DNA of 14,477 nucleotides, from assembly GCA_947487095.1 (NCBI GenBank), contig CANKVI010000013.1:1-14477 (forward strand), written 5' to 3'. The notes under the pieces were generated by a model. That model was not told the DNA's origin. It did not search any database and saw only the letters and a list, made by a program, of their open reading frames with translations. Made by a program: the position numbers and the translations under genes. Numbering within the stretch: the stretch's first letter is position 1; every line of letters begins with the position of its first letter. This DNA is from Acidimicrobiaceae bacterium (GTDB taxonomy: Bacteria > Actinomycetota > Acidimicrobiia > Acidimicrobiales > Ilumatobacteraceae). Below, piece by piece: positions 1 to 13,103 of this stretch.

Positions 1-481
1 CGCCTGACAATGTGTCTGCACGCTGATACGCCTGATCGGCTAAGCCAACGCGATCTAAATGATCAAAGGCAAGCCGGCGAAGTTGCTTGGGATACGAGCG
101 CACACCGTATCGTGGCCAATTCAGTCGGCCCAGCGCACCCGAGAGCACGTTTTCTAAACATGTTGCACGGTTGATTAACCCAAATTGTTGGAACACGAAC
201 CCAACGTGTCGGCGAACTTCACGAAGCTCTTTATTCGATGCTTCGCTTACACGCATGCCCATAACATCAACAGAACCCGATGTTGGTTTGTGCAGGCCGT
301 TTACGTGACGAAGCAGTGTTGATTTACCCGATCCGGACAAACCAATAAGGCACAGTAATTGCCCTCTCGGAATGTCCAGACTGACCTGGTCCAATGCCAG
401 TGTTCCGTTAGGAAACCTTTTTGAAATGTCGCTCAACCGAACAATCGGATCAGCTTGTTGGTTAAATCGGTTGAGCGACAT
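1..481 (-). CDS. phnC: Phosphonate ABC transporter ATP-binding protein PhnC (3' end cut by window edge)
   Basis: This is the ATPase of a phosphonate (or phosphite) importer that works with PhnD and an inner-membrane permease. The visible 160 residues start at an ATG at 481. They contain a Walker A motif GLSGSGKST at about residues 47-55 and a Q-loop in VFQQFGLINR at about 97-104. The segment ENVLSGALGR at about 110-119 is typical of the PhnC branch of ABC ATPases. The gene runs off the left edge inside the ABC signature, of which only LSG remains, so Walker B is not visible. It lies 25 bp downstream of phnD on the same strand and is probably cotranscribed with it. The ribosome-binding site is weak (GAG, 7 nt before the ATG). 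A perfect inverted repeat covers the start codon and is listed separately. The family assignment is firm; the exact substrate is not known. Confidence 0.93.
   Translation of the reverse strand, partial: MSLNRFNQQADPIVRLSDISKRFPNGTLALDQVSLDIPRGQLLCLIGLSGSGKSTLLRHVNGLHKPTSGSVDVMGMRVSEASNKELREVRRHVGFVFQQFGLINRATCLENVLSGALGRLNWPRYGVRSYPKQLRRLAFDHLDRVGLADQAYQRADTLSG
426..481. repeat. 15-bp perfect inverted repeat spanning the phnC start codon
   Basis: The arms ATGTCGCTCAACCGA (426-440) and TCGGTTGAGCGACAT (467-481) are exact reverse complements, separated by 26 bp. On the coding (minus) strand the first arm begins with the phnC ATG and encodes MSLNR. The second arm encodes RLSDI about 13 codons downstream. 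In mRNA this could form a strong hairpin that hides the start codon. In DNA it could be an operator. The repeat is seen directly; its function is an inference. Confidence 0.6.
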
Positions 482-506
482 GTTCAAACTCGTGTTTCTT
501 TTCTAA

Positions 507-1610
507 TTATCTGCACTTCGAGGACTTGGTGGCTTCGCACACTTGACGTACTCCGTCGTATTCCTTATCTGAATAAGGAACAAAGCCCCATGACTTATCT
601 TCAATCACTTGGCAGGTTGCTTCGTCTTTGCAAATTCCCATTGCCACGAAACCGGTCTTGTTTGCCTTCTTGATAACAAAGGTCTTGACCGTGTCTATCA
701 ATGACTTTGGCATGTCAACACGAATGGCCATTGGCGAGCCAGCAATTTCGCCGCTCTTCCATACCACTTTCAACTCTCCAGCCTTCAAGTCGCCCTTTTC
801 AATCAACTGGGAATCAACCATGGTGTCGTATGCAAATCCAACGTCACATGTTCCGCGGTTAACCGACAAAGCAGCAGAGTCATGACCACCGGCGTAAACG
901 GTGCTTTCCTTCGTCGCATCGATACCTACCGAGAGAAGGCCAGCATTTGGATAGAGGTAACCAGAGGTTGAGGATGGGTCAACGAAACAAATCTTCTTAC
1001 CCTTGAAGTCTGCAAGCTTGGTAACGTCTGCGCGGCTTGACTTGGTGATTCCGTAAGAGAAATATCCAGGCTTTGCAGTCGGTGAGGCTACTGCTGATCC
1101 AACTACGTCAATTTTTGCACCGCGTGCCTTCGCAAGTACGTAGGAGAAAGGACCGTAGAACGCAAGGTCAACACGTCCGGCAACTTGTGCCTCAATGATT
1201 CCTGCGTAGTCAGTTGCAGCGTAGAACTCAACTGGCATGCCGATTTCCTTCGACAATGCATCTACGAAGTTCTTGTACTTCAAGGTCATCGATGCTGCGT
1301 TCTCCGAAGGTACCGCACCAACGATGAACTTCTTTGGCCACTTTGACTTATCAACTTTTGCCGATGCAGCAGTTGCTGCCTTCAGCGAAGTGAGCCAAAT
1401 GTATTTCTTGGACAACGGAAGGTACGTGCACTTCAGTGTTCCCTCAACCTTATTGAGTTGAGCCTTGGTGCATGCCTGGCCATTCTTTGCAGCCGGTGCC
1501 GACTTGGCTTGAATTGTTGATACTCCGGAAGCCACGGACAACACTGTGGTCAAAGCAATCACTGTTGAAAGTTTGCGAGCAAAACCTGCTCGCTTTTTGA
1601 TCATGTTCAT
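507..1610 (-). CDS. phnD: Phosphonate ABC transporter substrate-binding protein PhnD
   Basis: This is the extracytoplasmic binding protein that delivers phosphonate to the PhnCE transporter. It has 367 residues. A Lys/Arg-rich N-terminus and hydrophobic stretch (about 1-30) form a Sec signal peptide, with a likely cut near residues 35-40. There is no lipobox Cys. Family motifs include YAGIIEAQVAGRVDLAFYGP (135-154), DPSSTSGYLYP (211-221) and AGGHDSAALSVNRGTCDVG (240-258). Between the signal and the fold is a short extra module, GQACTK...LKCTY...YIW, with C47, C61 and W72. The protein holds eight cysteines (47, 61, 208, 255, 327, 333, 358, 366), suggesting disulfides after export. A clear Shine-Dalgarno AAGGA lies at 1616-1620, 5 nt before the ATG. 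It sits between the anchor-I gene and phnC. PhnD relatives can also bind phosphite, so the ligand is not fixed by sequence. Confidence 0.93.
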   Translation of the reverse strand: MNMIKKRAGFARKLSTVIALTTVLSVASGVSTIQAKSAPAAKNGQACTKAQLNKVEGTLKCTYLPLSKKYIWLTSLKAATAASAKVDKSKWPKKFIVGAVPSENAASMTLKYKNFVDALSKEIGMPVEFYAATDYAGIIEAQVAGRVDLAFYGPFSYVLAKARGAKIDVVGSAVASPTAKPGYFSYGITKSSRADVTKLADFKGKKICFVDPSSTSGYLYPNAGLLSVGIDATKESTVYAGGHDSAALSVNRGTCDVGFAYDTMVDSQLIEKGDLKAGELKVVWKSGEIAGSPMAIRVDMPKSLIDTVKTFVIKKANKTGFVAMGICKDEATCQVIEDKSWGFVPYSDKEYDGVRQVCEATKSSKCR

Positions 1611-1648: not shown

Positions 1649-3349
1649 TTATTTTGAGAATTGATAGATGCCAACGGTTCCCGACAATTCGTAGGAAACG
1701 ATGACCATTGCCTTACCGGTTGGGCTTTCCTTGTCACTGACGAAAACGATTCCTTCTGGCGAAACGTCTCCCGCAGCAGCAGTCTTCTTCGTACTTTGCA
1801 ACAGGTTTCCAGCAGGATTAGATGTGTTGATGTACGACTTGAACATTGGCTCAACTGGGTTTGTTACGTCGTAGAGCATCAAACCACCATCGCGCTCCAA
1901 ACCGAGCACCATCCACATGCGACCATAAGCGCGACCAATTGCCAAACCTTCTGGCTCTGGACCCTTCGACGCACTGCGTGCATCAACTGCGTTGGTCAAA
2001 CCTGTGGTGGTATTCCAGTCTGCGTTAAAAGAACCCGCACGAGTTTTTGACAAATACTCCTCAATCGAAGAACCCGAGTCGTAAACACGGGTGAGCGGGA
2101 AGACACCTTCATTATTCGATGCTTGCCATACCGAGAATGAACGAGCACCGTAGCTGTAAGCCGCAGATACAGACGTTGAGCCAGTAACCGGTGCACCAGC
2201 AACTGAGGCAGGTGTAAATGGTGTTACTTTCAAGCGACCTGCAACTGCATCGGACTTCAATGTTGCATCAACTGATGAAGCAGCGTTCTTGCCGAAACGG
2301 ACGTCTTCTGCCTCGAGCGTTGTTGTTGAAGTGCCGCCCATCAAACACGGCCATTCACGAGCATCGCCTTCGTTAGCGGTGAACAAGTAGGTGGTTTCTC
2401 CACGAGTGACTTGTGCAATCGCATCTGGCTGATACATACCAAACACGTTTGCAGGAGCAATCTTTACTGCCGAATCCTTGTCGCTTGCATCGAGACCAAT
2501 TGATGCAAAGCTCTTGAATCCAAGGCCGTTAACTCCGACAACTTTCTTCGTAGTCAGATCGATTGTCGCGATTGCGTTGTTCTCCTGCAATGTGACATAT
2601 GCATATTCGCTGTCATTCGAGATGGTGATGTATTCAGGCTCTAGGTCTTGGGCAACGGTTGCGTTTGGACCAAACACTCGAGCACCTGCATAGATCAATG
2701 CGTTCTTGCGCTCGTTGAATGCACTGAAGTCAACAACGGTGGCCTTCAGTTTTGGAGCCGAAAGATCGATGATTGAAACCGAACCGTTTGGATCAGTTGT
2801 GGTTGGCAAGGCGCCATTGGTGAGGCAATATGAGGTTGGCTCTGCTTCATCAGCCGAAACAATGTATTGACCATTAGGTGAAAAATGAACTGAGTCAGGA
2901 AGCGACCCAACAACGATTCCGTTCGGAGCTGCTGAGCTCAACTTGCCGTTCACATCCGCGAGGAATATTTTGCCAGGAGCAGCTTTGTCTGCGCTTACCT
3001 GAGTGGCTATCGCAACCAAACCATCTTTTGTTGCGACGCTCTGAATTCCGGTGACGCCCTTCTTCGCAAGATTAATACGACCGAAAAGAACTGGTTTCTT
3101 TGGGTCTTTAATGCTGACGATGTCAATCTGGTTTGTTGCGCCATTCGTGACGAATATGCGCTTCGACTTGGCGTCGAATGCAGAAATTTCTGCTCCGCCC
3201 AAACCAGAACCACTTACCCAACGTCCTACAGAGATGAGTTCAGCCGAACTTCCCTCTGCAGAAACATTCTGCACAGGAAGTGCAGCGGTGAAAAGGGTTG
3301 ATATTGCTACCGATGTTGTGAGAATTGCCAATTTGTGAATTTTTCGCAT
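1649..3349 (-). CDS. Secreted choice-of-anchor I family beta-propeller-like protein
   Basis: This is an exported protein of 566 residues (from the ATG at 3349) of the family named choice-of-anchor I, which has repeated LVIVD-like propeller blades. Members are often labelled alkaline-phosphatase-like or surface glycoprotein, but their biochemical role is unsettled. Visible family motifs are GGAEISAFDA (51-60), SADEAEP (165-171), DLEPEYI (235-241), TANEGDAREW (324-333), GPEPEGLAIG (463-472), LERDGGLMLYDVTNP (484-498) and the C-terminal ELSGTVGIYQF. Residues 1-31 look like a signal peptide ending in VSA. The protein ends right after the last motif, with no LPXTG, helix or other anchor, so it may be released. 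An in-frame GTG at 3382 would add 11 residues in front of the signal; neither start has a good Shine-Dalgarno. As the first gene before phnD-phnC, it may act in external organophosphorus capture. That role is an inference. Confidence 0.85.
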   Translation of the reverse strand: MRKIHKLAILTTSVAISTLFTAALPVQNVSAEGSSAELISVGRWVSGSGLGGAEISAFDAKSKRIFVTNGATNQIDIVSIKDPKKPVLFGRINLAKKGVTGIQSVATKDGLVAIATQVSADKAAPGKIFLADVNGKLSSAAPNGIVVGSLPDSVHFSPNGQYIVSADEAEPTSYCLTNGALPTTTDPNGSVSIIDLSAPKLKATVVDFSAFNERKNALIYAGARVFGPNATVAQDLEPEYITISNDSEYAYVTLQENNAIATIDLTTKKVVGVNGLGFKSFASIGLDASDKDSAVKIAPANVFGMYQPDAIAQVTRGETTYLFTANEGDAREWPCLMGGTSTTTLEAEDVRFGKNAASSVDATLKSDAVAGRLKVTPFTPASVAGAPVTGSTSVSAAYSYGARSFSVWQASNNEGVFPLTRVYDSGSSIEEYLSKTRAGSFNADWNTTTGLTNAVDARSASKGPEPEGLAIGRAYGRMWMVLGLERDGGLMLYDVTNPVEPMFKSYINTSNPAGNLLQSTKKTAAAGDVSPEGIVFVSDKESPTGKAMVIVSYELSGTVGIYQFSK

Positions 3350-3410
3350 TGCCGAACAATAAACGGCAGTGCTGAACTTCACGTCTCATGTAGGTAACTT
3401 TGTGACAATC

Positions 3411-3488: not shown

Positions 3489-3539
3489 TCACTACGTTTT
3501 GACATTTTCTTGTAATCACACTGGCTTACTGTGCCGATC

Positions 3540-4004
3540 ATGACAGTTGCCCCAATAGACATTTCTCGAGAACAACGAACCGAACTTCTTGCCAGCGCCG
3601 ACACTGATGCAGTCCAACGACTTGCTGAAAGAGCATTGAGCTACACACTGGTTTCTGAAACTCTGGTTGTTACCAAGAAACCGGAAACCGGACTCGTCAT
3701 GATGCAAGTTCGTGAGCCGGTGTGCAAGGAGCGTTTCTACTTAGGAGAAATTGCAGCAACACGAGCAGAGGTTTTAGTAGGTAATGAAAAAGGTTGGGCC
3801 ATTCGTTTGGGGACCGACAAAGCCGCTGTCCTAGGTGCGGCAATTCTGGATGCAATTTGCGAAATCGTCCAAGATGATCTTTTGGAATTGCAAAAAGATG
3901 TGTTAGCGCTATGCGTTGAGACTGCGCGAATCGAGTCAATTTCTGCGGTCCATGAGTGGAACGAAATTTCACCAACAATTGTGAACTTTGAAGAGTTGGA
4001 TTGA
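3540..4004 (+). CDS. phnG: C-P lyase core subunit PhnG
   Basis: This is a small subunit of the PhnGHIJ carbon-phosphorus lyase core. With PhnH, PhnI and PhnL it is needed to swap the adenine of ATP for phosphonate, giving alkylphosphonate ribose triphosphate. The protein has 154 residues from the ATG at 3540, close to the 150 of E. coli PhnG. Typical segments are ETGLVMMQVREPV (about 46-58), FYLGEIAATRAEVLV (63-77) and GWAIRLGTDKAAVLGAAILDA (about 82-102). An in-frame GTG at 3531 would add MPI only. Neither start has a Shine-Dalgarno, and a leaderless start is possible. It is the first gene of the operon; its stop TGA (4002-4004) is one base away from the phnH ATG. Confidence 0.92.
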   Translation: MTVAPIDISREQRTELLASADTDAVQRLAERALSYTLVSETLVVTKKPETGLVMMQVREPVCKERFYLGEIAATRAEVLVGNEKGWAIRLGTDKAAVLGAAILDAICEIVQDDLLELQKDVLALCVETARIESISAVHEWNEISPTIVNFEELD

Positions 4005-4005
4005 T

Positions 4006-4641
4006 ATGAACTTTGTCAGTCTTTCCCCAATTGATTCCAACGACGTGTTTCGAGCAATGTTGCAAACCCTCGGACAACCAGGAACTATTGAATCACTCAC
4101 ACTCTCCAATAATTCTCAATGCCCCACAGAGGTTGCACTATTGCTCTCGCTCATTGATGTCGAGACAAAGTTTGCTGTAGTTTCCTCAATCCCTGAGGCA
4201 GATCAGCAGCACTGGACCTCACTCATTCACGCTGCATCTGGTGCGCCCTCCGCGCCAGAAACAAAGTCTGAATGGGTGCTTTCATTTGGTGAGCCAACCA
4301 TTGACATTCTGGAAAGTATTCCGCGCGGCACGCCTCACCGCCCAGAAATGGGATGTCGGCTCATCATTGCATGTAGTGAAGTAAGAAGCACTCCACAATT
4401 TGAATCCTTGGAGACCGAGGAAAACTTAACGACTATTTCACTACGTGGACCGGGAATTGAAATTGAAAACATTTTGCACGTCGTCGGAATTAGCCAACGA
4501 TTCTTTGAAGTGCTACACGACATAAACAGTTCATTCCCAGCGGGCGTAGACGTTTGGCTGTGCGACAAATTTGGAAATGTTTCTGCAATTAGCCGAAGTA
4601 CCGAAGTGAACGTCGTAACGACGCGAATTGGAGCAAAATAA
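4006..4641 (+). CDS. phnH: C-P lyase core subunit PhnH
   Basis: This is a subunit of the PhnGHIJ core complex, structurally a PLP-enzyme-like fold without the cofactor. It has 211 residues from the ATG at 4006; E. coli PhnH has 194. The N-terminus SNDVFRAMLQTLGQPG (11-26) matches the family start region. Other family-like segments are SIPRGTPHRPEMGCRLII (104-121), SLRGPGIE (145-152) and SSFPAGVDVWLCDKFG (165-180). A TTG at 3988 would give a longer protein overlapping phnG, but the ATG fits the family start better. AAGAG at 3991-3995 may serve as a weak ribosome-binding site. The sequence is diverged from E. coli but the neighbourhood fixes the assignment. Confidence 0.9.
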   Translation: MNFVSLSPIDSNDVFRAMLQTLGQPGTIESLTLSNNSQCPTEVALLLSLIDVETKFAVVSSIPEADQQHWTSLIHAASGAPSAPETKSEWVLSFGEPTIDILESIPRGTPHRPEMGCRLIIACSEVRSTPQFESLETEENLTTISLRGPGIEIENILHVVGISQRFFEVLHDINSSFPAGVDVWLCDKFGNVSAISRSTEVNVVTTRIGAK

Positions 4642-5750
4642 TGGGCTACGCAGCCGCACGCGGTGGTTTAGACGCAATTGAAGCAGCAGAGAATCTCGTT
4701 CGAAGAAAGCGTCTGAATGCAGATTGCGACTGGGTTACTCCTGATCAAATTGTTGGACGTTTTAGACTTGCCGTTGATCGCGTAATGGGGGAAGCCGGAT
4801 TATGGGAAGAGGAATTAGCGGCAATCGCGATTCGTCAGGCTGAAGGCGACCTAATTGAGGCAGTGCACCTCCTTCGCTCATATCGATCTACGCTTCCCCG
4901 CTTCGCGTATAGCGAAGTAACTGACGCTGATGAACTTCGTGTCATTCGACGAATTGTTCCCGCCTTCCGAAATCCGCCTGGGCCACAACTCCTTGGACGT
5001 ACGAGTGACTACACCGGTCGTTTGCTTGAACTGAGTTCGGAAATTGCGGGACAGGAGGAAGCCCAACTCCTTGCTTCGTTAGCACTCACTCAAGAACAAC
5101 ACCCGTCGCAACCATCTGGTGATCAACAACAACAGCAACCTCGCAGGCTGTTGGAAACACTGCGCGACATGGATCTCATGGTGGACCGCCGACGGCACGA
5201 TGACCCAGAACCATTTGACATCACACGCACACCAGCTCGTCCACCTGCATCACGTTCCGCCCGACTGTCCTCCATGTCGCGCGCCGAAACCGGAGCATTG
5301 GTAAACCAGTGGTACCGAAACATTCTTGGGCCTGATGGATACCTTCACGAAGTCACGCTCGGTGAAGTACGACATGGTTACCTCCCATTGCGCATTGTTC
5401 ACCCCATCACTGGCAACCCAGTTGCAATTGGCAGTATTCGCGTGACCGAAGTTGAAGCGATCGAAGATCTCAACGGAATTGAAGAGGAACGCGATCGTTT
5501 CGATGTGGGCTATGGAATTTGCCTGGGGCATAACGAGAAAAAAGCCATCGCTATGGCAAACCTCGACATTGCATGCCACCGCGACAATGGCAGGTCTCAA
5601 ATTGAACAGTCACTTTTATTGACAACAGATGGTCTTGACTCATCGGGGTTTCTTGAACACTTGAAGCTTCCCCATTACGTCACATTTCGTTCAATGATGG
5701 AACGCAAGAATGCTGTTCGACAAGCACGAAAGAATGGTCAGCCAAAATGA
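4641..5750 (+). CDS. phnI: C-P lyase core subunit PhnI
   Basis: PhnI is the catalytic nucleosidase-like subunit that, with PhnG, PhnH and PhnL, forms alpha-D-ribose 1-phosphonate 5-triphosphate from phosphonate and MgATP. The protein has 369 residues against 354 in E. coli. Conserved stretches include FRLAVDRVMGEAGLWEEELA (41-60), LLRSYRSTLPRFAYSE (77-92), LLGRTSDYTGRLLE (117-130), DITRTPARPP (193-202) and YGICLGHNEKKAIAMA (291-306). EHLKLPHYV (339-347) carries the H-x4-H pair (H340, H345) that corresponds to the metal-binding histidines of the E. coli complex. A Gln-rich insert, including five Q in a row (162-166), lies in a variable region. The ATG overlaps the phnH stop in TAATG. A good Shine-Dalgarno GGAG sits at 4630-4633, 7 nt upstream. 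Confidence 0.95.
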   Translation: MGYAAARGGLDAIEAAENLVRRKRLNADCDWVTPDQIVGRFRLAVDRVMGEAGLWEEELAAIAIRQAEGDLIEAVHLLRSYRSTLPRFAYSEVTDADELRVIRRIVPAFRNPPGPQLLGRTSDYTGRLLELSSEIAGQEEAQLLASLALTQEQHPSQPSGDQQQQQPRRLLETLRDMDLMVDRRRHDDPEPFDITRTPARPPASRSARLSSMSRAETGALVNQWYRNILGPDGYLHEVTLGEVRHGYLPLRIVHPITGNPVAIGSIRVTEVEAIEDLNGIEEERDRFDVGYGICLGHNEKKAIAMANLDIACHRDNGRSQIEQSLLLTTDGLDSSGFLEHLKLPHYVTFRSMMERKNAVRQARKNGQPK

Positions 5751-6607
5751 CCACACTGCTCAACAACCTCATTGATGACAATGAAAGCGAACAATTTGGA
5801 ATCTTGGATGAATATTCCAAGCGCGAAATTCGTCGCGCTATTTTGACTGCAGTCGCTGTTCCTGGTTACCAAGTTCCGTTTGGATCACGCGAAATGCCCG
5901 TTGCTCGAGGCTGGGGGTCAGGCGGATTGCAAATAACACTCGCAGTAATTGGGCCGAAAGATGTCATTAAGGTGATTGATCAAGGAGACGATCAAGGAGT
6001 AAACGCAGTAAACCTCCGCCGACTCATTGTGCAGTCAACAAAAGTTTCCGAAACAACAACAGCGGCAAAATCTTCGATCGTGCAAAGCCGACATCGAATA
6101 CCTGAAGACGGTTTAGATCAGCGACACATTTTGGTTTTGCAAGTACCAGTGCCAGAACCGCTGCGTGGCGTAGAACGCGACATGCGCGAACTTGCTCGCA
6201 TGCACGCAGAAGCCGACTACTCAAAAATGTGGGTCAGTCTGTATGAAGACAAAGTTCGTAACGGCGTTATCACTCAAACGACGGGTTACCCGTGTTTAGT
6301 GAACGATCGATACGTGATTGCAACCACGCCAATCCCTCGCTGGGACATTCCAAAACTTGATCAATCACCATTCCTCACCCTGTTTGGTGCTGGGCGTGAA
6401 AAACGGATTTACGCAGTTCCACCATTTACGAAAGTTGAACCACTCACTTTTGAAGATGTGCCATTTGAAGTTGAAAAAACCGAGGGCGCTACCTGCTCAC
6501 AGTGTGGCAGCAGTTCGTCGTTCCTTGTTGAAATTCCAGGCGCGCAATCACGTTGGGTCTGTAGTGACACCGACTGGTGTGAACGAAATTTGGAGGGAAA
6601 CTTATGA
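5747..6607 (+). CDS. phnJ: C-P lyase PhnJ, radical SAM alpha-D-ribose 1-methylphosphonate 5-phosphate lyase
   Basis: PhnJ is the radical S-adenosylmethionine enzyme that cleaves the carbon-phosphorus bond. It yields the alkane or other organic product and ribose 1,2-cyclic phosphate 5-phosphate. The protein has 286 residues; E. coli has 281. VAVPGYQVPFGSREMPVARG (36-55) is almost identical to the family, and G40 lines up with the glycyl-radical Gly32 of E. coli. RHRIPE, LQVPVPEPLR (131-140) and LFGAGREKRIYAVPPFTKVE (212-231) are also conserved. The unusual C-terminal cluster motif is present as C250-x2-C253-x18-C272-x5-C278, ending in the conserved CSDTDWC. E. coli has 21 residues in the middle gap, so this loop is three shorter. 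The start overlaps the phnI stop (ATGA). All catalytic residues I can check are present. Confidence 0.97.
   Translation: MTTLLNNLIDDNESEQFGILDEYSKREIRRAILTAVAVPGYQVPFGSREMPVARGWGSGGLQITLAVIGPKDVIKVIDQGDDQGVNAVNLRRLIVQSTKVSETTTAAKSSIVQSRHRIPEDGLDQRHILVLQVPVPEPLRGVERDMRELARMHAEADYSKMWVSLYEDKVRNGVITQTTGYPCLVNDRYVIATTPIPRWDIPKLDQSPFLTLFGAGREKRIYAVPPFTKVEPLTFEDVPFEVEKTEGATCSQCGSSSSFLVEIPGAQSRWVCSDTDWCERNLEGNL
6592..6597 (+). promoter_or_regulatory. Strong Shine-Dalgarno for phnK inside the end of phnJ
   Basis: GGAGGG lies 6 nt before the phnK ATG (6604) and inside the last codons of phnJ. It is the strongest ribosome-binding site I see in the operon, and it fixes the phnK start. It suggests that PhnK is translated independently of coupling. 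Confidence 0.6.
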
Positions 6608-7458
6608 CGTCTGTTGTGTCACCTGAATGGGTGCTAAAGGTAAATCAACTAGGAAAGATTTTTGGGAATCTGTCTGAAAATGGACTCGCGCTAACCGGTC
6701 CCGAAAACGGATCTTCAAAAGATCCTGCCACGGGCGCCATCGTTGCCGCATGGGACGTGTCGTTTGAAGTTGCCGCGGGTGAAGCACTCGGAGTTGTCGG
6801 TGAATCTGGTTCCGGGAAATCAACCGTTATGCGTTGTATTGCTGGTGATCAATCATCGAGTGCGGGTTCTGTACAGATTCGCACGTCACCAAATGAGCAG
6901 ATCGATGTGCTTTCGCTTACACCGTCTGAACGTCGGCAACTACGGATTGACAAAATTGCTGTGGTTTATCAAGACCCCGCGGAAGGGCTCGACCTGAATG
7001 TGACCGCAGGTGGAAACATCGCTTCACCACTCACCGCGGCAGGGTGGAGAAACTTTTCTTCTATCCGTAATCGCGCAAGTGAGCTACTGCTCCGCACCGA
7101 AGTTCCGCTTAACAGAATGGACGACGTAGTGAAGTCGTTTTCGGGCGGCATGAAACAACGTGTGCAATTGGCAAAAGCACTTGCAAACCGCCCACCTATC
7201 GTGCTTCTCGACGAACCCACAACGGGACTTGATGCGAGCGTTGCTGCTGGGGTATTGGACCTGATTCGCGGTCTGCTTGAAGAGTTTGGCCTAGCAGCCG
7301 TTGTGGTTTCACACGATTTCTCGGTCATCGAAATGCTCACCAACCGTTGCATTGTCATGAACCACGGACGCGTAGTGGAAAGTGCACTCACCGACCAGCT
7401 TCTTGAGGACCCTCACCACCCATACAGCCAAAAACTTGTATCGGCTGCACGAGCATGA
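6604..7458 (+). CDS. phnK: C-P lyase ABC-type ATPase PhnK
   Basis: PhnK is an ABC-type ATPase without membrane domains that binds the PhnGHIJ core and is required for phosphonate breakdown in vivo. Here it has 284 residues, longer than the roughly 250 of E. coli. Walker A is GESGSGKST (66-74), the Q-loop is in VVYQDPAEGLDLN (120-132), the signature is SFSGGMKQRVQLAKAL (178-193), Walker B is IVLLDEP (199-205) and the switch His is H237 in VSHDFS. The tail DPHHPYSQKLVSAA (269-282) is oligopeptide-transporter-like, as is normal for PhnK. Extra length comes from an insertion at about residues 21-48, between the first strand and Walker A, containing ENGLAL and NGSSKDP. The start overlaps the phnJ stop (ATGA) and has a strong GGAGGG 6 nt upstream. 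Confidence 0.93.
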   Translation: MTSVVSPEWVLKVNQLGKIFGNLSENGLALTGPENGSSKDPATGAIVAAWDVSFEVAAGEALGVVGESGSGKSTVMRCIAGDQSSSAGSVQIRTSPNEQIDVLSLTPSERRQLRIDKIAVVYQDPAEGLDLNVTAGGNIASPLTAAGWRNFSSIRNRASELLLRTEVPLNRMDDVVKSFSGGMKQRVQLAKALANRPPIVLLDEPTTGLDASVAAGVLDLIRGLLEEFGLAAVVVSHDFSVIEMLTNRCIVMNHGRVVESALTDQLLEDPHHPYSQKLVSAARA

Positions 7459-8228
7459 GCCACATAATCAACAATGCTGATCATGCAGTTCTAGACGTTC
7501 GCAATTTACGAAAACATTTTGTACTTCACACCATAGATTCCAGAATTGTCGAAGCACTGAATGGGGTCTCGCTCAAAGTATCTGCCGGCGAACACGTTGC
7601 ACTAGCTGGAACCAGTGGCGCAGGAAAGTCATCGCTGCTCAAATCGATTTATCGCACCTATAAGCCATCTAGCGGTGAAGTGTTTTTGAAGCTTGACGAT
7701 GATTCTTTTGTCGACCTGGTTTCACTTACCGATTCAGAATTGGCCACGTTGCGTGGTACTCAAATTGGATATGTTTCACAATTCCTACGCGCTCAACCTC
7801 GCCGATCGACTTTTGAAATCGTTACAAAAGCGGGAATTCAACGCGGAATGGATTCCGATACAGCAAAGCAAGCAGCTGCCTACTCGCTCCAACGATTGAA
7901 CCTAGACGAAGCCCTATGGGATGTCAGCGCTTCCATGTTGTCGGGCGGAGAAAAGCAGCGAGTAAACCTCGCAGCTGGAACCATTTCTCCACCTCGCCTA
8001 CTTCTGCTCGATGAACCAGTTTCCGCACTTGACCCTGTGAACAGAGAATCCGCACTTGAACTGATTGGCACATTGACCGACCAAGGAGTTGCAGTACTTG
8101 CAGTGTTTCACGATATTGACGCCATGGAGAGGCTCGCATCCAGAGTCATCGTGCTTCGCAGTGGTGTTGTTGATTACGAAGGTAGCCCACAGGAAACATT
8201 GGCACGCTTAGAAGGAGTGGCACGATGA
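7455..8228 (+). CDS. phnL: C-P lyase ABC-type ATPase PhnL
   Basis: PhnL is the second soluble ABC ATPase of the pathway; it is needed with PhnGHI for the first step in vitro and can form a heterodimer with PhnK on the core complex. The protein has 257 residues; E. coli has 226. Walker A is GTSGAGKSS (52-60), the Q-loop is in GYVSQFLR (105-112), the signature is MLSGGEKQRVNLAAG (161-175), Walker B is LLLLDEP (182-188) and the switch His is H219 in FHDIDAM. The segment ISPPRLLLLDEPVSALDP is typical of PhnL. The start lies in an ATGA overlap with phnK and has no strong Shine-Dalgarno, so translation is probably coupled. It differs from PhnC, which sits with the transporter genes on the other strand. 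Confidence 0.93.
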   Translation: MSHIINNADHAVLDVRNLRKHFVLHTIDSRIVEALNGVSLKVSAGEHVALAGTSGAGKSSLLKSIYRTYKPSSGEVFLKLDDDSFVDLVSLTDSELATLRGTQIGYVSQFLRAQPRRSTFEIVTKAGIQRGMDSDTAKQAAAYSLQRLNLDEALWDVSASMLSGGEKQRVNLAAGTISPPRLLLLDEPVSALDPVNRESALELIGTLTDQGVAVLAVFHDIDAMERLASRVIVLRSGVVDYEGSPQETLARLEGVAR

Positions 8229-9430
8229 GCAACAAAACTTTTTCCATCACCAACGTGACGGCAGTTCTCCCGAATTCCTTACTTGATGATGCAACGATCA
8301 CCGTCGAGGACGGTGTCATCGTTGACATTTCCGAACGAGGAGAAGCCGCACAAGATTCACTCAATGGTGGTGGATCAATTTGTATTCCTGGAATTATTGA
8401 CACCCATAGCGATGGTTACGAACAGGAGTTGCGTCCTCGGCCAAATGCATATTTACCTAGCAATTTTGCACTTCGATCATTTGAGAGTCGTGTGCGCGCA
8501 GCAGGAATTACCACCATGTTTCACGGCATCGGCTTTGAAAACGATGCCAAGTGGGGGCGAACTGTAGAAATGGCAAACGAACTGTGCGACACCATCATTG
8601 ACTATTCAGACAGCCTTACCGCACTTATCGACCATCACATTTTGTACAGGCTTGACGCCCGCGACCCCGACGGATATCCAGCCCTGATTGCTCGTTTCTC
8701 GCAGGCTCGGAACACTGAACTTTCACGGGTGCCACTCATCTCATTTGAAGACCACACTCCAGGGCAGGGTCAATACACAGACCGCACAGCGCTAGAGCGA
8801 TACATCATCGGCAATCGCAAGGTTTCTGAGGACGAAGCTCGTCGAATTGTTGATGAAACTATTCGCGAACGCGATGCCCTAATTGGTAACCGTGAGAAAG
8901 CATTGCCTTGGCTTACGGAGCACGCATCGCTCGGCACAATTCGATTGATGGCACATGATCCAGCAACTGGTGCAGACGTTCGGGAAGCTGTTGATTGGTC
9001 AGCTTCAATTGCCGAGTTCCCAACCACTAATGAAGCGGCTCGTCTAGCAAAAGAATCCGGACTTCGAACCGTATGCGGCGGACCAAATGTATTGCGAGGT
9101 CAAAGCCATAGTGGAAATGTCAGTGCGCAGGAACTCATTGCACAGGGACTGTGTGATGGTTTAGCTTCGGACTATCTCCCAACATCATTGCTCGGCTCCG
9201 TCGCCGCTCTCGTAGAACGAAAAGTGTGTTCCCTTCCAGAGGCCATTCGACTCGTCACATCTGGCCCAGCCAAAACCGTTGGCTTGGAAGATCGTGGCGA
9301 AATCTGTGTTGGAAAACGTGCTGACTTGGCTTTGATTCGATTCCATGGAAACCTTCCTTCAGTCCTCGGCGTGCTTACAGGAGATTCTGAAAACGCAGAG
9401 CGGCTGAGCCTCATTGGTGCATCGTCATGA
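8225..9430 (+). CDS. phnM: PhnM, alpha-D-ribose 1-methylphosphonate 5-triphosphate diphosphatase
   Basis: PhnM is a metal-dependent amidohydrolase-fold enzyme that removes pyrophosphate from the ribose triphosphate intermediate, making the substrate for PhnJ. It has 401 residues against 378 in E. coli. Family signatures are CIPGIIDTHSDGYEQELRPR (53-72; H61 is a metal-ligand candidate), ISFEDHTPGQGQYTD (172-186), LMAHDPAT (241-248; H243) and GLASDYLPTSLLG (312-324; D316). The C-terminal part GEICVGKRADLALIR (358-372) is the usual amidohydrolase beta-sandwich end. The start overlaps the phnL stop (ATGA) and has AGGAG at 8213-8217, 7 nt upstream. Its own stop overlaps the next gene's ATG. Confidence 0.94.
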   Translation: MSNKTFSITNVTAVLPNSLLDDATITVEDGVIVDISERGEAAQDSLNGGGSICIPGIIDTHSDGYEQELRPRPNAYLPSNFALRSFESRVRAAGITTMFHGIGFENDAKWGRTVEMANELCDTIIDYSDSLTALIDHHILYRLDARDPDGYPALIARFSQARNTELSRVPLISFEDHTPGQGQYTDRTALERYIIGNRKVSEDEARRIVDETIRERDALIGNREKALPWLTEHASLGTIRLMAHDPATGADVREAVDWSASIAEFPTTNEAARLAKESGLRTVCGGPNVLRGQSHSGNVSAQELIAQGLCDGLASDYLPTSLLGSVAALVERKVCSLPEAIRLVTSGPAKTVGLEDRGEICVGKRADLALIRFHGNLPSVLGVLTGDSENAERLSLIGASS

Positions 9431-10215
9431 AGTTTGCATCAGGAATCCACCCTGTGCTTGTAGAAAGCGCCGAGGCTGCTCTTGTTGCATATAAATATGC
9501 AATGTCTACTTTCTCGCGAGAGGAACGACTGACGCTCATCGGTACCGGCGGTGATGGAACTCCAACATATTTCTTAGACGAATATGTTGAACGACCAGTA
9601 CTCGATGTATTCGAACGTCACAACGTGAACGTGTTGTCGGAAGAAATCGGTTGGATTGATCGTGGATCATCAGAAACGATTGTTGTCGACCCACTTGATG
9701 GAACAGCAAATGCTGCCGCTGGAGTTCCCTTGGCATGTTTCTCCGCTGCCAGAGTCGTAGACGGTTTTGCTGTGGAAGGGCTTGCAGTTTGGCTTGATGG
9801 GGATCGCTACTGGTGGTCGACTTCAGATTCACCGATTCACAACACCACTACTAGACGCACCTCATTAGATGGAGCTGCTGTTTCAATGCTTCGCCCGAGA
9901 GCTGAAACGTTTGATGCATGGACACGAGTAGCAAAAAGAATCGATCGTGTACGCGTACTCGGTTCGAGCGTTCTTGAAGGATGCCTCGTCGCCGATGGGG
10001 CAATTGATGCATTCTGCGATCCGGGCGGAGACATTCACCGCATTGTTGATTTAGCAGCATTGGACATCATCATTCGTGCTGCAGGCGGAGTGTTGATTGA
10101 TCTGCATGGCCGTGATCTGGTCTACACACCCGACTTATCATTGCGCTGGAGTGGAATTGTCGCCGCCACCCCTCAATTAGCTGATGAGTTGCGAATGGAA
10201 TTACTACGCTCGTAG
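9427..10215 (+). CDS. Inositol monophosphatase / archaeal-type FBPase family phosphatase in the phn operon
   Basis: This is a magnesium-dependent, lithium-sensitive-type phosphatase of 262 residues. GTGGDGTPTYFLDEYVE (39-55), VLSEEIG (69-75), VVDPLDGTANAAAGVP (86-101) and HRIVDLAALDIIIRAAGG (204-221) give the expected metal ligands E72/E73, D88, D91 and D208. The DGTPT and IVDLAA forms, instead of the usual WDxAAG, look closest to archaeal bifunctional inositol-monophosphatase/fructose-bisphosphatase proteins such as Archaeoglobus AF2372 (recalled from memory, not searched). The ATG overlaps the phnM stop in ATGA, so it is almost surely part of the C-P lyase operon. Since phnN and phnP are missing, I infer it may dephosphorylate a ribose bisphosphate produced after C-P cleavage. 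It has no P-loop, so it is not PhnN, and no HxHxDH, so it is not PhnP. Family is firm; substrate is unknown. Confidence 0.85.
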   Translation: MKFASGIHPVLVESAEAALVAYKYAMSTFSREERLTLIGTGGDGTPTYFLDEYVERPVLDVFERHNVNVLSEEIGWIDRGSSETIVVDPLDGTANAAAGVPLACFSAARVVDGFAVEGLAVWLDGDRYWWSTSDSPIHNTTTRRTSLDGAAVSMLRPRAETFDAWTRVAKRIDRVRVLGSSVLEGCLVADGAIDAFCDPGGDIHRIVDLAALDIIIRAAGGVLIDLHGRDLVYTPDLSLRWSGIVAATPQLADELRMELLRS

Positions 10216-10217
10216 AG

Positions 10218-11186
10218 GTGCGTTCCACACTTCATCCAGTTGCATATTCGGGTGAGCTTGGTACTTCCCCACATTCGGTCAAACTGCTTGGAGAACCACT
10301 AGTTCTCTGGCGGGACAGCGCAGGAACCGCACACGCAACGAGCGATATTTGTGTCCACCGAGGTACTGCACTCAGTGGCGGTTGCGTAAAGGGCGACGCC
10401 ATTATGTGCCCCTACCACGGGTGGCAATTCGACGAGACCGGAAAGTGCACACACATTCCCCAGTTGGAAGACCCAGCAAAGGTTCCGTCAAAAGCAAAGA
10501 TTGCCGCACATACATGCGTCGAGCAATACAACATGATCTGGGTGTCACTAGACGAACCACGACGACCACTTCCAATGATCGAAGAATTTGGTGCGAGCGA
10601 CTGGGTGTGGGTGAACTGTGGGCCATACGACTGGAATGCTCATTCCTCGCGCCAACTAGAGAACTTTACCGACTTCGGACACTTCCCTTGGGTGCACCCA
10701 GGTTTACTTGGCGACATCAACCGTCCTGTTGTGCCCGACTACGAAGTTCGCACTGAAGGACACGTGGTGAAGTACGACATCATCCGTCCAGAAGCACCAA
10801 ACACCAATGACTTCCCCGTGTTTGCCAATGCAAGTACCGAAGCACCGATGCGCACGTCGCATTACGAGATTCACACGCCATTTACTTTGCTGCTGCATCT
10901 TGGTTGGGGCGGTAAAGAAGGCATGGTGTACTTCTTCGTCTCGCAACCAATTGACGAAGAACACTCACGTGGCTTTCTCATCATTGGTCGCAATTACAAC
11001 TACGACCAACCCGCTTCAGTGCTGCAAGATTTTGAAGACATGATTTTCAATCAAGACAAAACGATCGTCGAATCACAGATTCCGAAGAAAGTTCCGTACG
11101 ACATCACCAAAGAAGTACACATGAAATTTGATGCGGTTGCTCTTGCTTACCGCAAAGCAATGACCGCGAACGGGTTCGCCAACTAA
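10218..11186 (+). CDS. Rieske [2Fe-2S] non-haem iron oxygenase, terminal gene of the phn operon
   Basis: This is an oxygenase alpha-subunit-like protein of 322 residues, related to the pheophorbide a oxygenase/vanillate O-demethylase type. The Rieske centre is C45-x-H47-x16-C64-x2-H67 (CVH...CPYH). The mononuclear iron site is NFTDFGHFPWVH (149-160), with bridging D152 and ligands H155 and H160. The third carboxylate ligand is probably in DFEDMIFNQDK (271-281). IVESQIPKKVP (283-293) is a usual C-terminal marker. It starts with GTG two bases after the phosphatase stop and without a Shine-Dalgarno, implying coupling. The start is supported by the family-typical LHPVAYSGEL directly after it. No reductase or ferredoxin gene is nearby, so electrons must come from elsewhere. 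Possible roles are N- or O-demethylation or oxidation of a phosphonate or its organic product. These are inferences; no characterised relative in a C-P lyase operon comes to mind. Confidence 0.87.
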   Translation: MRSTLHPVAYSGELGTSPHSVKLLGEPLVLWRDSAGTAHATSDICVHRGTALSGGCVKGDAIMCPYHGWQFDETGKCTHIPQLEDPAKVPSKAKIAAHTCVEQYNMIWVSLDEPRRPLPMIEEFGASDWVWVNCGPYDWNAHSSRQLENFTDFGHFPWVHPGLLGDINRPVVPDYEVRTEGHVVKYDIIRPEAPNTNDFPVFANASTEAPMRTSHYEIHTPFTLLLHLGWGGKEGMVYFFVSQPIDEEHSRGFLIIGRNYNYDQPASVLQDFEDMIFNQDKTIVESQIPKKVPYDITKEVHMKFDAVALAYRKAMTANGFAN

Positions 11187-11189
11187 GAC

Positions 11190-13103
11190 TTACGGTTCGA
11201 CTATTGCAAAGCCAGTTGCGAACGTATCAAGGTTGCCAAATATGTTCAGCAATGCAGCGGCATCGCCCTCAATAGTCACTGTTCCCGCACTGAGCTCGTC
11301 CACAAACGTGGTCACTTGAGCAATGATTTCCAGTAACAATGCTCGCGAAATAGTGATGGTCGCTTCAGCGGCAGCTTCGTGACGACCTTGAGTTGAATAC
11401 ATCGTTCGGTTTGACAAACCGAGCACCCACTGATGATCGGGTGTTCCTACCATGTCGGTAAATGTCCAGTTCACACAATGTGAAAGCCCACCAATTTTTT
11501 CCGACATCACCCGAACCGAAAGCACGTCAAACACTTGTTCAATGGTCATCGCGCGAATCAAGCTGCGCGCCCGCACGTGCGTAGACGTTGGTGGCGGAGG
11601 CCCTTTTCGCAGTTCCTGAGCTCCCATTAAGTAAGCGTTCCTAAAGGTGGATGACTCGGCCTGATAACCCAACTGTTCCAATACATCTGCTTGCAGATTT
11701 CGCGCATCTGCATTCGAAGGGTCTGCGAACACTGCATGATTCACCACTTCGGCGACCCATCGGTAATCGCCAGCTTCGAATGATTTGCGGGCCGACGCCA
11801 ACAGCGATTCAATTCCGCCAGCAAGTTCCACATACCGTTTTCCCGCTTCGGTCGGTGGAAGTTTATTGAGGTTGGCAGGGTTTCCGTCATACCAACTGAG
11901 ATATCGCTGATACACCGCTTTGACGTTGTGCACGAGGTCGCCATAGAACCCGCGAGTGTGTTCGTGGGCTTGAAACTCTTCTGGCAACTCAAGCATGTTG
12001 GCTATTTCCACTGCAGTCATCCCATGGTTTGCATGACGCATGGTTTGATCGTGCATCCACTTGTACAAGTCACGCTGCAAAATGAGGAACTCGCGAACAT
12101 CGCTAGTTCCCCACGTTGGCCAGTTGTGCGAAGTGAAAAGAATGCTTGTCGTCGCTGCAAACATTTCGATGCTTTGGTTGATGTACTTCGACCAGTTGAG
12201 CGCATTACGCACAAGTGCTCCGCGAATGGGAACCAAGTTGTGCATAGTTTGCGAACAATTCTCTGCCATGCATAACCAGCCATGGTCTGGAAAGAAGAAA
12301 TTCATTTCAGCAGGTGCTTCGGTCTCTGGCGTAAGTTGGAAAATCACTCGCACACCATCAAGTACAAGTTCTTCTCCCGTAAATGTGATGTCCGTAGTTG
12401 GCGCGAGCAATCCCGGAGGGCCCATTGGCACACCTGTGCCTAAACCACAGTCAACGTGACCGGTTGGTCCTGGCGGAAGCATCGGTCCGAATTGGTAGGT
12501 CGCGCGTCTTCCCATTGCTGGGCCAGCGATGACGTTCTCTCCAACTGTTTCATGCAAGAAACCAATTGGCGCAACAATCTGGCAGCGCCCTGCATCAACA
12601 TCTTCCTTTGTCGTTACACCAAGCACACCACCGAAGTGGTCGGCATGCGAATGCGTGAAGATCACCACAGTGGTTGGCAATTTTTCAACATGCTCGTCCA
12701 TCAGTTCAAGCGCGGCACGTGCAGTGTGCTCACTGGTTAGCGGATCTATCACAACCCAACCATTCGTTCCGCGAATAAACGTGATATTCGAAATGTCGTA
12801 GCCACGCACCTGCCATACGCCATCGGCAACTTTGAATAAACCGTGATGCGCATTAAGGGTTGCATGTCGCCACAGCTGAGGGTTAACCGTCTCAGGACAT
12901 TCCCGACCATCACGAAGGAATTCATAATTGTCGCTATTGCCTACGAAGCGACCCTTTTCGTCAGAAATCAATCCGTTTTGGCGTTTGGCTATAAACCCTT
13001 TGCGCACTCGCTCTACGTCTACAGGATCGAAGCTGCGGTTGTCGGCGTTGCGATTGTGTAACTGTGTGTGGGCAGTTGCTGGTTTCGGCTGCTCGGTAGT
13101 CAC
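11190..13103 (-). CDS. SdsA1-type alkyl sulfatase (metallo-beta-lactamase fold)
   Basis: This enzyme hydrolyses linear alkyl sulfates to alcohol and sulfate through a two-zinc site. It has 637 residues: an MBL domain (about 80-340), a helical dimerisation domain (about 370-500) and a C-terminal sterol-carrier-protein-like domain (about 515-635). THSHADHFGG (150-159) gives H151, H153, D155 and H156. E262 (TEAPAEM), E281 (AENCSQTMHNL) and H326 (LFTSHNWPTWG) keep the spacing of the zinc ligands I recall for Pseudomonas SdsA1. The residue after AENCS is Q where many relatives have H. There is no signal peptide, so it is probably cytoplasmic, unlike secreted SdsA1. The start is a GTG at 13103 with AAGG at 13111-13114, 7 nt upstream. 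Its stop lies 3 bp from the Rieske stop (convergent), and its start lies about 28 bp from the esterase start (divergent). Confidence 0.92.
   Translation of the reverse strand: MTTEQPKPATAHTQLHNRNADNRSFDPVDVERVRKGFIAKRQNGLISDEKGRFVGNSDNYEFLRDGRECPETVNPQLWRHATLNAHHGLFKVADGVWQVRGYDISNITFIRGTNGWVVIDPLTSEHTARAALELMDEHVEKLPTTVVIFTHSHADHFGGVLGVTTKEDVDAGRCQIVAPIGFLHETVGENVIAGPAMGRRATYQFGPMLPPGPTGHVDCGLGTGVPMGPPGLLAPTTDITFTGEELVLDGVRVIFQLTPETEAPAEMNFFFPDHGWLCMAENCSQTMHNLVPIRGALVRNALNWSKYINQSIEMFAATTSILFTSHNWPTWGTSDVREFLILQRDLYKWMHDQTMRHANHGMTAVEIANMLELPEEFQAHEHTRGFYGDLVHNVKAVYQRYLSWYDGNPANLNKLPPTEAGKRYVELAGGIESLLASARKSFEAGDYRWVAEVVNHAVFADPSNADARNLQADVLEQLGYQAESSTFRNAYLMGAQELRKGPPPPTSTHVRARSLIRAMTIEQVFDVLSVRVMSEKIGGLSHCVNWTFTDMVGTPDHQWVLGLSNRTMYSTQGRHEAAAEATITISRALLLEIIAQVTTFVDELSAGTVTIEGDAAALLNIFGNLDTFATGFAIVEP

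What the first reader, a model, noticed from the sequence alone, without database searches (positions are those of the whole stretch)
9427..11186. C-P lyase operon with a phosphatase and a Rieske oxygenase in place of phnN/phnP
Seen: phnGHIJKLM continues through an ATGA overlap into an archaeal-type IMPase/FBPase-like gene and then, after 2 nt, a Rieske oxygenase. Known: in E. coli the PhnJ product, 5-phosphoribosyl 1,2-cyclic phosphate, is opened by PhnP and turned into PRPP by PhnN; Eggerthella lenta uses a different cyclic phosphodiesterase route that ends in ribose 5-phosphate. Inferred: this organism also ends the route by dephosphorylation, with the IMPase-like enzyme acting on a ribose bisphosphate, and the oxygenase handles the carbon part. 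This would be a distinct tail for the C-P lyase pathway.
Basis: partly seen in the sequence, partly recalled or inferred. Interest (0 to 1): 0.8.

Follow-up and report, generated by a model that had tools for sequence, protein, structure and literature searches.

The report
C-P lyase operon with dedicated phosphatase
A freshwater actinobacterium carries the genes that break carbon-phosphorus bonds with an extra phosphatase gene built into the operon, and the same phosphatase accompanies these genes in many other Actinomycetota that appear to lack the two textbook end-of-pathway enzymes, so it probably finishes the pathway in a different way.

Summary
The genes are as described: phnGHIJKLM, a 4-nt overlap, an archaeal-type FBPase/IMPase-fold phosphatase (9427-10215), 2 nt, and a Rieske oxygenase (10218-11186).

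The two tail genes fare differently. The phosphatase is a discrete clade that follows phnM directly in 44 of 80 phnJ loci, lies elsewhere in 13 more, and occurs in 65 of 78 phnJ genomes. In evenly drawn samples it was found only with PhnJ. No genome of 44 passed the PhnN or PhnP cut-off. It also travels with phn on a conjugative Arthrobacter plasmid.

The Rieske gene accompanies phn in 1 of 80 loci, a close relative (L002).

Best reading: a lineage-specific dephosphorylating tail ending in ribose 5-phosphate plus Pi. What opens the cyclic phosphate is unresolved. In three loci a 2H phosphodiesterase lies beside the phosphatase, with the fold of the plant enzyme for ADP-ribose 1'',2''-cyclic phosphate. 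Thirteen phnJ genomes lack the phosphatase; no assay exists. New variant of a known kind.

The parts
2..487 (-). phnC-like ABC transporter ATPase, cut by the window edge
   Evidence: open-ended ORF, named by eye; homologues lie beside phnD in relatives
507..1610 (-). phnD-type phosphonate-binding protein
   Evidence: PF12974 172.7 bits; TIGR01098 over cut-off, the PhnD equivalog TIGR03431 below
3531..4004 (+). phnG
   Evidence: PF06754 69.5 bits
3988..4641 (+). phnH
   Evidence: PF05845 98.2 bits; TIGR03292 over cut-off
4641..5750 (+). phnI
   Evidence: PF05861 330.7 bits
5747..6607 (+). phnJ, C-P lyase; C-terminal four-Cys cluster CSQC...C...C visible in the translation
   Evidence: PF06007 402.1 bits; translation
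6604..7458 (+). phnK-type ATPase
   Evidence: best NCBIfam match TIGR02323, below cut-off
7455..8228 (+). phnL-type ATPase
   Evidence: best NCBIfam match TIGR02324, below cut-off
8225..9430 (+). phnM, ribose 1-phosphonate 5-triphosphate diphosphatase
   Evidence: NF011990 and NF011984 over cut-off
9427..10215 (+). phn-linked IMPase/FBPase-fold phosphatase, overlapping phnM by 4 nt; conserved acids D51, E72, E73, D88, D91, D208 present (roles in metal binding and catalysis recalled)
10218..11186 (+). Rieske oxygenase (Rieske + VanA_C); CxH/CxxH and DxxHxxxxH motifs intact; lineage-specific neighbour, not a conserved part

Best explanation
The gene at 9427-10215 encodes a phosphatase dedicated to the end of the C-P lyase route in many Actinomycetota. 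PhnJ makes 5-phosphoribosyl 1,2-cyclic phosphate (PRcP). A phosphodiesterase opens the ring to a ribose bisphosphate; in some relatives this is probably the linked 2H protein, in the window's organism it is unidentified. The IMPase-fold enzyme then removes the phosphate that came from the phosphonate, giving Pi and ribose 5-phosphate, so that neither PhnP nor the ATP-using kinase PhnN is needed. Shown: gene order, conservation, co-occurrence with PhnJ, failure of PhnN and PhnP to reach cut-off in relatives, intact catalytic residues, predicted fold. Inferred: substrate, order of steps, end products. The Rieske oxygenase is a lineage-specific neighbour, probably co-transcribed (2-nt gap).
For: IMPase within 150 nt after phnM on the same strand in 44 of 80 loci, elsewhere in 13 more, 12 with phnM missing or cut; a start codon at a 4-nt overlap in 34 of the 44 (counted by hand). 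Clade present in 65 of 78 phnJ genomes: 28 of 32, 37 of 46 (in G006 only a 117-residue piece). Best score per genome is 201-544 bits; apart from second pieces of the clade in G001, G013 and G024, other IMPases there score 68 or less. Phylum sample: 15 of 396 with PhnJ, 2 with the clade, both PhnJ-positive. Class sample: 2 of 198 with PhnJ, the same 2 with the clade, next best 86.5 bits. PhnN 0 of 44 and PhnP 0 of 44 over cut-off; one of 14 control genomes is over it in each search, E. coli heading the list; the two PhnN-like matches examined are guanylate kinase. Arthrobacter plasmid typed conjugative, phnDCEFGHIJKLM-IMPase with 4-nt overlap; Pseudonocardia plasmid, 120-nt gap. D51, E72, E73, D88, D91 in 60 of 60 and D208 in 59 of 60; W122, R156, P157, R205 conserved in the clade and rare in 13 paralogues. 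A 2H phosphodiesterase within about 200 nt of the IMPase, divergent, in L026, L030 and L032, and 7 kb away in L038, with a fold like the Appr>p cyclic phosphodiesterase 1fsi/1jh6.
Against: No assay. 13 of 78 phnJ genomes show no clade member; five of them have a phn contig that ends early, but eight (L031, L033/L056, L052, L053, L057, L059, L063, L080) have 1 kb or more after phnM, and no replacement was identified. 13 of the 15 PhnJ-positive genomes of the phylum sample lack the clade. No ring-opening enzyme is conserved with it: 2H PF13563 gave no match in G001-G022 and an Eggerthella-type PHP protein none in 13 of 13 small genomes of close relatives. The fifth 2H locus, L035, lies in a genome (G600) without a clade member, so the 2H protein is not tied to the IMPase. 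One homologue, in Nonomuraea (204 bits), has no phn gene within 9 kb. A review (PMC7866108, passages) reports phnN in Arthrobacter glacialis and one Streptomyces; those strains were not examined here. Completeness of the MAGs is not given by the tool.
Confidence: 0.5

Rival explanations
1. The IMPase-fold enzyme does both steps itself: it opens PRcP and then removes the remaining phosphate, as the PHP-fold enzyme of Eggerthella lenta does (that enzyme's reaction is recalled; NCBIfam names it a 1,2-diphosphodiesterase).
For: Among 33 gene families found in 5 or more loci, those looked at were regulator, permease, HD, 2H and spurious frames; not all were annotated. The Arthrobacter plasmid operon carries the IMPase as its only tail gene before an MFS transporter. 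PhnP, PF13563 2H and Eggerthella-type PHP searches found nothing over cut-off, or no match, in the small genomes examined. In another actinomycetotal lineage a PHP enzyme (NF041661 over cut-off in L085, L087, L088) stands beside the operon. Clade-specific residues suggest a changed substrate.
Against: No member of the IMPase superfamily is known to me to open cyclic phosphodiesters (recalled). Four loci with the IMPase also have a 2H phosphodiesterase, which would be superfluous. Generic enzymes such as RNase Z might do the opening.
Confidence: 0.15
2. The phosphatase acts elsewhere in phosphonate metabolism: clearing dead-end intermediates, for example 5-phosphoribosyl compounds, or dephosphorylating an imported phosphate ester.
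For: In 13 of 80 loci it is not behind phnM but elsewhere in the stretch, in L012, L026 and L032 beside phnD and in the Rhodococcus-type loci about 2 kb behind phnC; in G029 it follows a permease-like frame (read by eye). IMPases are often promiscuous (recalled). It was not found in 13 of 78 phnJ genomes.
Against: The commonest place is directly behind phnM, often overlapping. It was not found in PhnJ-negative genomes of the 396- and 198-genome samples.
Confidence: 0.22
3. The phosphatase and the Rieske oxygenase are chance neighbours captured behind the operon.
For: Fits the Rieske gene: 1 of 80 loci, and no phn gene in the 1.5 kb flanks of 3 of 3 homologue loci.
Against: For the phosphatase: conserved order in many genera of Actinomycetota and on two plasmids.
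Confidence: 0.05

Closest known systems
E. coli-type C-P lyase operon with PhnP and PhnN
   Same: phnGHIJKLM core and phosphonate transporter genes
   Different: No PhnP or PhnN over cut-off in 44 genomes of relatives; an IMPase-fold gene at the end
Eggerthella lenta-type PRcP diphosphodiesterase tail (NF041661; KEGG 'phnPP' as named in PMC8774927, passages)
   Same: Ends in ribose 5-phosphate plus Pi without PhnN, if the inference here is right; one hydrolase gene near the operon
   Different: PHP fold, unrelated to the IMPase fold; over cut-off in L085, L087, L088; larger IMPase genomes have only 80-99-bit PHP relatives
rcsF/DUF1045 2H-phosphodiesterase variant (PMC10574752 section 5.3, read; Variovorax L144)
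   Same: A 2H protein is proposed to replace PhnP; 4 loci with the IMPase carry a 2H protein too
   Different: Variovorax keeps phnN; of the 2H proteins here, 1 of 1 scanned matched no Pfam model and 2 of 2 scanned no NCBIfam model
Archaeal dual FBPase/IMPase (MJ0109, AF2372; NF009321)
   Different: Below the family cut-off (132.3 of 264 bits); W122, R156-P157, R205 conserved in the phn clade, rare in 13 bacterial paralogues
Rieske non-haem oxygenases NdmA, SxtT, DdmC
   Same: Rieske and catalytic domains, 155.5, 117.8 and 64.9 bits
   Different: No reductase gene seen in the window; substrate unknown

Membership tests
C-P lyase core operon | phnG to phnM present, in order | tested here: met
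   (K and L below the equivalog cut-offs but best matches)
C-P lyase core operon | PhnJ C-terminal cysteine cluster | tested here: met
   CSQC, then C and C, read in the translation; its catalytic role is recalled
C-P lyase tail of E. coli type (PhnP, PhnN) | PhnN over TIGR02322 cut-off | tested here: not met
   0 of 44 relatives incl. G001, G002; none seen in the window. Own genome not held
C-P lyase tail of E. coli type (PhnP, PhnN) | PhnP over TIGR03307 cut-off | tested here: not met
   0 of 44; the weak hit in G002 is nearest to RNase Z
E. lenta-type PRcP diphosphodiesterase | a PHP protein like that of L087 | tested here: not met
   no match at E 0.001 in G001, G002 and 11 other small genomes of relatives
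IMPase/FBPase superfamily (PF00459) | score over gathering cut-off and conserved acids | tested here: met
   73.3 of 27 bits; D51, E72, E73, D88, D91 in 60 of 60 and D208 in 59 of 60
Archaeal FBPase/IMPase equivalog NF009321 | score over curated cut-off | tested here: not met
   132.3 of 264 bits
Archaeal FBPase/IMPase equivalog NF009321 | activity on fructose 1,6-bisphosphate and inositol phosphate | not testable with these tools
   needs an assay
Rieske oxygenase, VanA type | PF00355 and PF19112 domains with metal ligands | tested here: met
   motifs read, their roles recalled
2H phosphoesterase (linked gene in relatives, A2) | two H-x-[ST] motifs and the LigT/CPDase fold | tested here: met
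2H phosphoesterase (linked gene in relatives, A2) | a homologue in the window's own genome | not tested
   own genome not held; PF13563 gave no match in G001 and G002, but that model did not ring at the linked 2H genes of L026, L030, L032 and L038 either

The most novel reading that the evidence does not exclude
A single IMPase-fold enzyme hydrolyses both ester bonds of 5-phosphoribosyl 1,2-cyclic phosphate to ribose 5-phosphate and Pi. That would be a cyclic phosphodiesterase activity in the lithium-sensitive phosphatase superfamily, and a second, independently evolved one-enzyme ending of the C-P lyase pathway.
Probability: 0.13. Interest if true: 0.82.

Novelty: new variant of a known kind. 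Interest (0 to 1): 0.6.

Why it matters
How organisms without PhnP and PhnN finish the C-P lyase pathway is an open point; a review states that both are replaced in some organisms and that Trichodesmium grows on methylphosphonate without PhnNOP (PMC10574752, section 5.3 read). A dedicated phosphatase shared by many Actinomycetota gives a concrete, testable candidate and, if right, changes the pathway's balance (no ATP spent on PRPP, Pi released directly). Ilumatobacteraceae are among the main phnJ carriers in an oligotrophic lake where methylphosphonate yields methane in oxic water (PMC10734540, passages), so the variant may matter for lake methane.

Tried and rejected
Rieske oxygenase as part of the conserved tail: rejected. 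Beside phn in L002 only, of 80 loci; 51 of 59 phosphatase places had 900 nt or more behind the phosphatase, but some contigs, L001 among them, end too early to tell. 4 of 198 class genomes have a match at E 1e-60 or better, three of them PhnJ-negative, with no phn gene in their 1.5 kb flanks. The many 60-74% relatives listed come without genomic context and were not placed.

PhnN hidden elsewhere: matches of 64.4 bits or less in 42 of 44 genomes. Two (G002, G034) were examined and both are guanylate kinase over its cut-off; the others were not examined one by one.

PhnP hidden elsewhere: 33 of 44 genomes have matches of 38 bits or less. The one examined (G002) is best matched by a ribonuclease Z model, just under its cut-off (343.3 of 363 bits).

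DUF1045 (PF06299): 0 of 58, but no control rang, so uninformative.

Eggerthella-type PHP protein: 449-592 bits in G099, G408 and G315 (G315 is the query's own), 131.6 in G213, 80-99 bits in larger actinomycete genomes with and without the IMPase, so not discriminating there; no match in 13 small genomes of close relatives.

The 10 loci without the IMPase but with 1 kb or more after phnM: their downstream frames were listed and only those of L053 and L080 were scanned. No replacement tail was found; L046 lies in a genome that has the clade beside another phn copy (L045). Promoter and terminator scans gave nothing beyond chance. A PDB sequence search with the 2H profile found nothing; only the fold comparison did. 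In some searches an unlisted family is not excluded.

Literature: searches brought no report of an IMPase or Rieske gene in phn operons. The only paper with C-P lyase, Rieske and phnJ (PMC9999580, passages) names Rieske in a reference only; the inositol passages of PMC10574752 and PMC7866108 do not concern phn operons; the other six papers were seen as listing only. PMC9381506 (passages) had nothing relevant. The library holds only CC-licensed papers. The review PMC3957732 and PMC2719359 are not held, so prior mention cannot be excluded.

The samples and 43/44 carry no names; calling L085-L088, L090 and L091 Coriobacteriia-like, and the small MAGs Acidimicrobiia, is inference from the Eggerthella-type enzyme and from mixed record titles.
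Full report
Observation. The window holds phnC (cut by the edge), phnD and a choice-of-anchor-I protein on the minus strand, then phnGHIJKLM, an IMPase-fold gene and a Rieske oxygenase on the plus strand, then a converging alkylsulfatase-like gene. The IMPase start overlaps the phnM stop by 4 nt (ATGA at 9427) and the Rieske GTG start follows the IMPase stop after 2 nt. The finding is accurate in its anatomy. No whole genome is held for the window. The closest held relatives are two MAGs, L001 and L002, with 98 and 97% identical PhnJ, titled Acidimicrobium and Ilumatobacteraceae.

Is the IMPase part of the system? A scan of one-genome-per-species contigs with the window's PhnJ gave 168 relatives, of which the best 80 were kept. 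In 44 of these 80 loci an IMPase of this clade starts within 150 nt after phnM on the same strand; in 13 it lies elsewhere in the stretch; in 12 phnM is missing or the contig ends (two of these, L024 and L025, have the IMPase after phnL); in 10 there is none despite 1 kb or more; L039 has less than 1 kb. All 59 loci with an IMPase hit score 202 bits or more. By record titles the 44 include Acidimicrobiia, Saccharopolyspora, Pseudonocardia, Prauserella, Amycolatopsis, Nocardia, Mycobacterium, Actinoplanes, Streptomyces, Streptantibioticus and Actinopolymorpha. In 34 of the 44 a start codon lies at the 4-nt overlap (counted by hand).

The 80 loci lie in 78 genomes. The clade was found in 28 of 32 and 37 of 46 of them, together 65 of 78 (in G006 only a 117-residue piece). 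In one search the best match per genome scores 201-544 bits; apart from second pieces of the clade in G001, G013 and G024, every other IMPase scores 68 or less, so it is a discrete group. Of the 13 genomes without it, five have a phn contig that ends early and eight have 1 kb or more behind phnM. In evenly drawn samples it was found only with PhnJ: phylum of G002, 15 of 396 with PhnJ and 2 with the clade, both PhnJ-positive; class, 2 of 198 with PhnJ and the same 2 with the clade, the next best IMPases scoring 86.5 and 86.4 bits. These samples share G002 and G029, so the co-occurrence rests on two positives and many negatives, beside the 65 of 78 above.

Among 72,556 plasmid records four hold a match and three of these are clade-like, 182-221 bits. 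The Arthrobacter sulfonylureivorans plasmid p1, typed as conjugative, carries phnDCEFGHIJKLM and then the IMPase with a 4-nt overlap. A Pseudonocardia plasmid has phnGHIJKLM and, after 120 nt, the IMPase. The third, in a Nonomuraea record, has no phn gene within 9 kb.

Are PhnN and PhnP missing? Over the curated cut-offs: PhnN 0 of 44, PhnP 0 of 44; in each search one of the 14 control genomes is over the cut-off, E. coli heading the list. Two PhnN-like matches examined are guanylate kinases; the PhnP-like match of G002 is nearest to RNase Z. Against this, PMC7866108 (passages) reports phnN in Arthrobacter glacialis and one Streptomyces.

What other tails exist? The 13 PhnJ genomes of the phylum sample without the IMPase were fetched as L081-L093. 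The Eggerthella-type diphosphodiesterase is over cut-off beside phn genes in L085, L087 and L088, a 75% identical copy is in G408 (L086), and weaker relatives are in L090 and L091. L082 has a TIM-barrel protein after phnM. On plasmids, Haloarcula has phnM, a TIM-barrel protein and a HAD hydrolase, and Variovorax has DUF1045 and phnN; the Nostoc and Thermus clusters looked at show no obvious tail. The ending of the pathway is thus the part that varies, and the IMPase lineage fits as one more solution.

The Rieske gene. It matches NdmA, NdmB, SxtT and SxtDIOX best among solved structures, DdmC further down, and has many 60-74% relatives in databases. It sits by phn only in L002 of the 80 loci. 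Some other relatives have PhnZ-like (L012, L044, L080) or PhnY-like (L021, L044) oxygenases beside phn, all below the equivalog cut-offs. The Rieske enzyme may process a particular phosphonate or may be unrelated.

Verdict. No print mention was found in searches, but the main specialist review is not held.

Noticed in passing
window 1649-3382 (-): A choice-of-anchor-I protein (PF22494, 289.6 bits) lies between phnD and phnG; homologues lie upstream of phnG in 14 of 80 phnJ loci (L001, L002, L009-L011, L013-L020, L022). It might release phosphonates from esters outside the cell (guess).
   Followed up: partly
L026:19869-20468, L030:14318-14887, L032:19991-20584, L035:1-462 (-), L038:6340-6852 (-): A 2H phosphodiesterase family near phn that matched no Pfam or NCBIfam model where scanned; the fold resembles the plant Appr>p cyclic phosphodiesterase.
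   Followed up: partly
L012, L021, L044, L080 and others: PhnZ-like HD oxygenases (L012, L044, L080) and PhnY-like hydroxylases (L021, L044), below the equivalog cut-offs, sit beside C-P lyase genes, so two phosphonate routes seem clustered.
   Followed up: partly
L141:10533-13157; L082:12064-14167: phnM followed by a TIM-barrel protein and, in Haloarcula, a HAD hydrolase: possibly yet another phosphodiesterase plus phosphatase tail.
   Followed up: no
L145 (Arthrobacter sulfonylureivorans plasmid p1): A phn operon with transporter genes and IMPase on a plasmid typed as conjugative.
   Followed up: no
L013:13669-14426: The IMPase is split over two frames, a possible pseudogene or assembly error.
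   Followed up: no
window 11190-13103 (-): An alkylsulfatase-like metallo-beta-lactamase protein converges on the Rieske gene, 3 nt apart; also in L002.
   Followed up: no
L147:8881-9756: A Nonomuraea homologue of the phn IMPase, 50% identical, without phn neighbours; perhaps a sister clade.
   Followed up: partly
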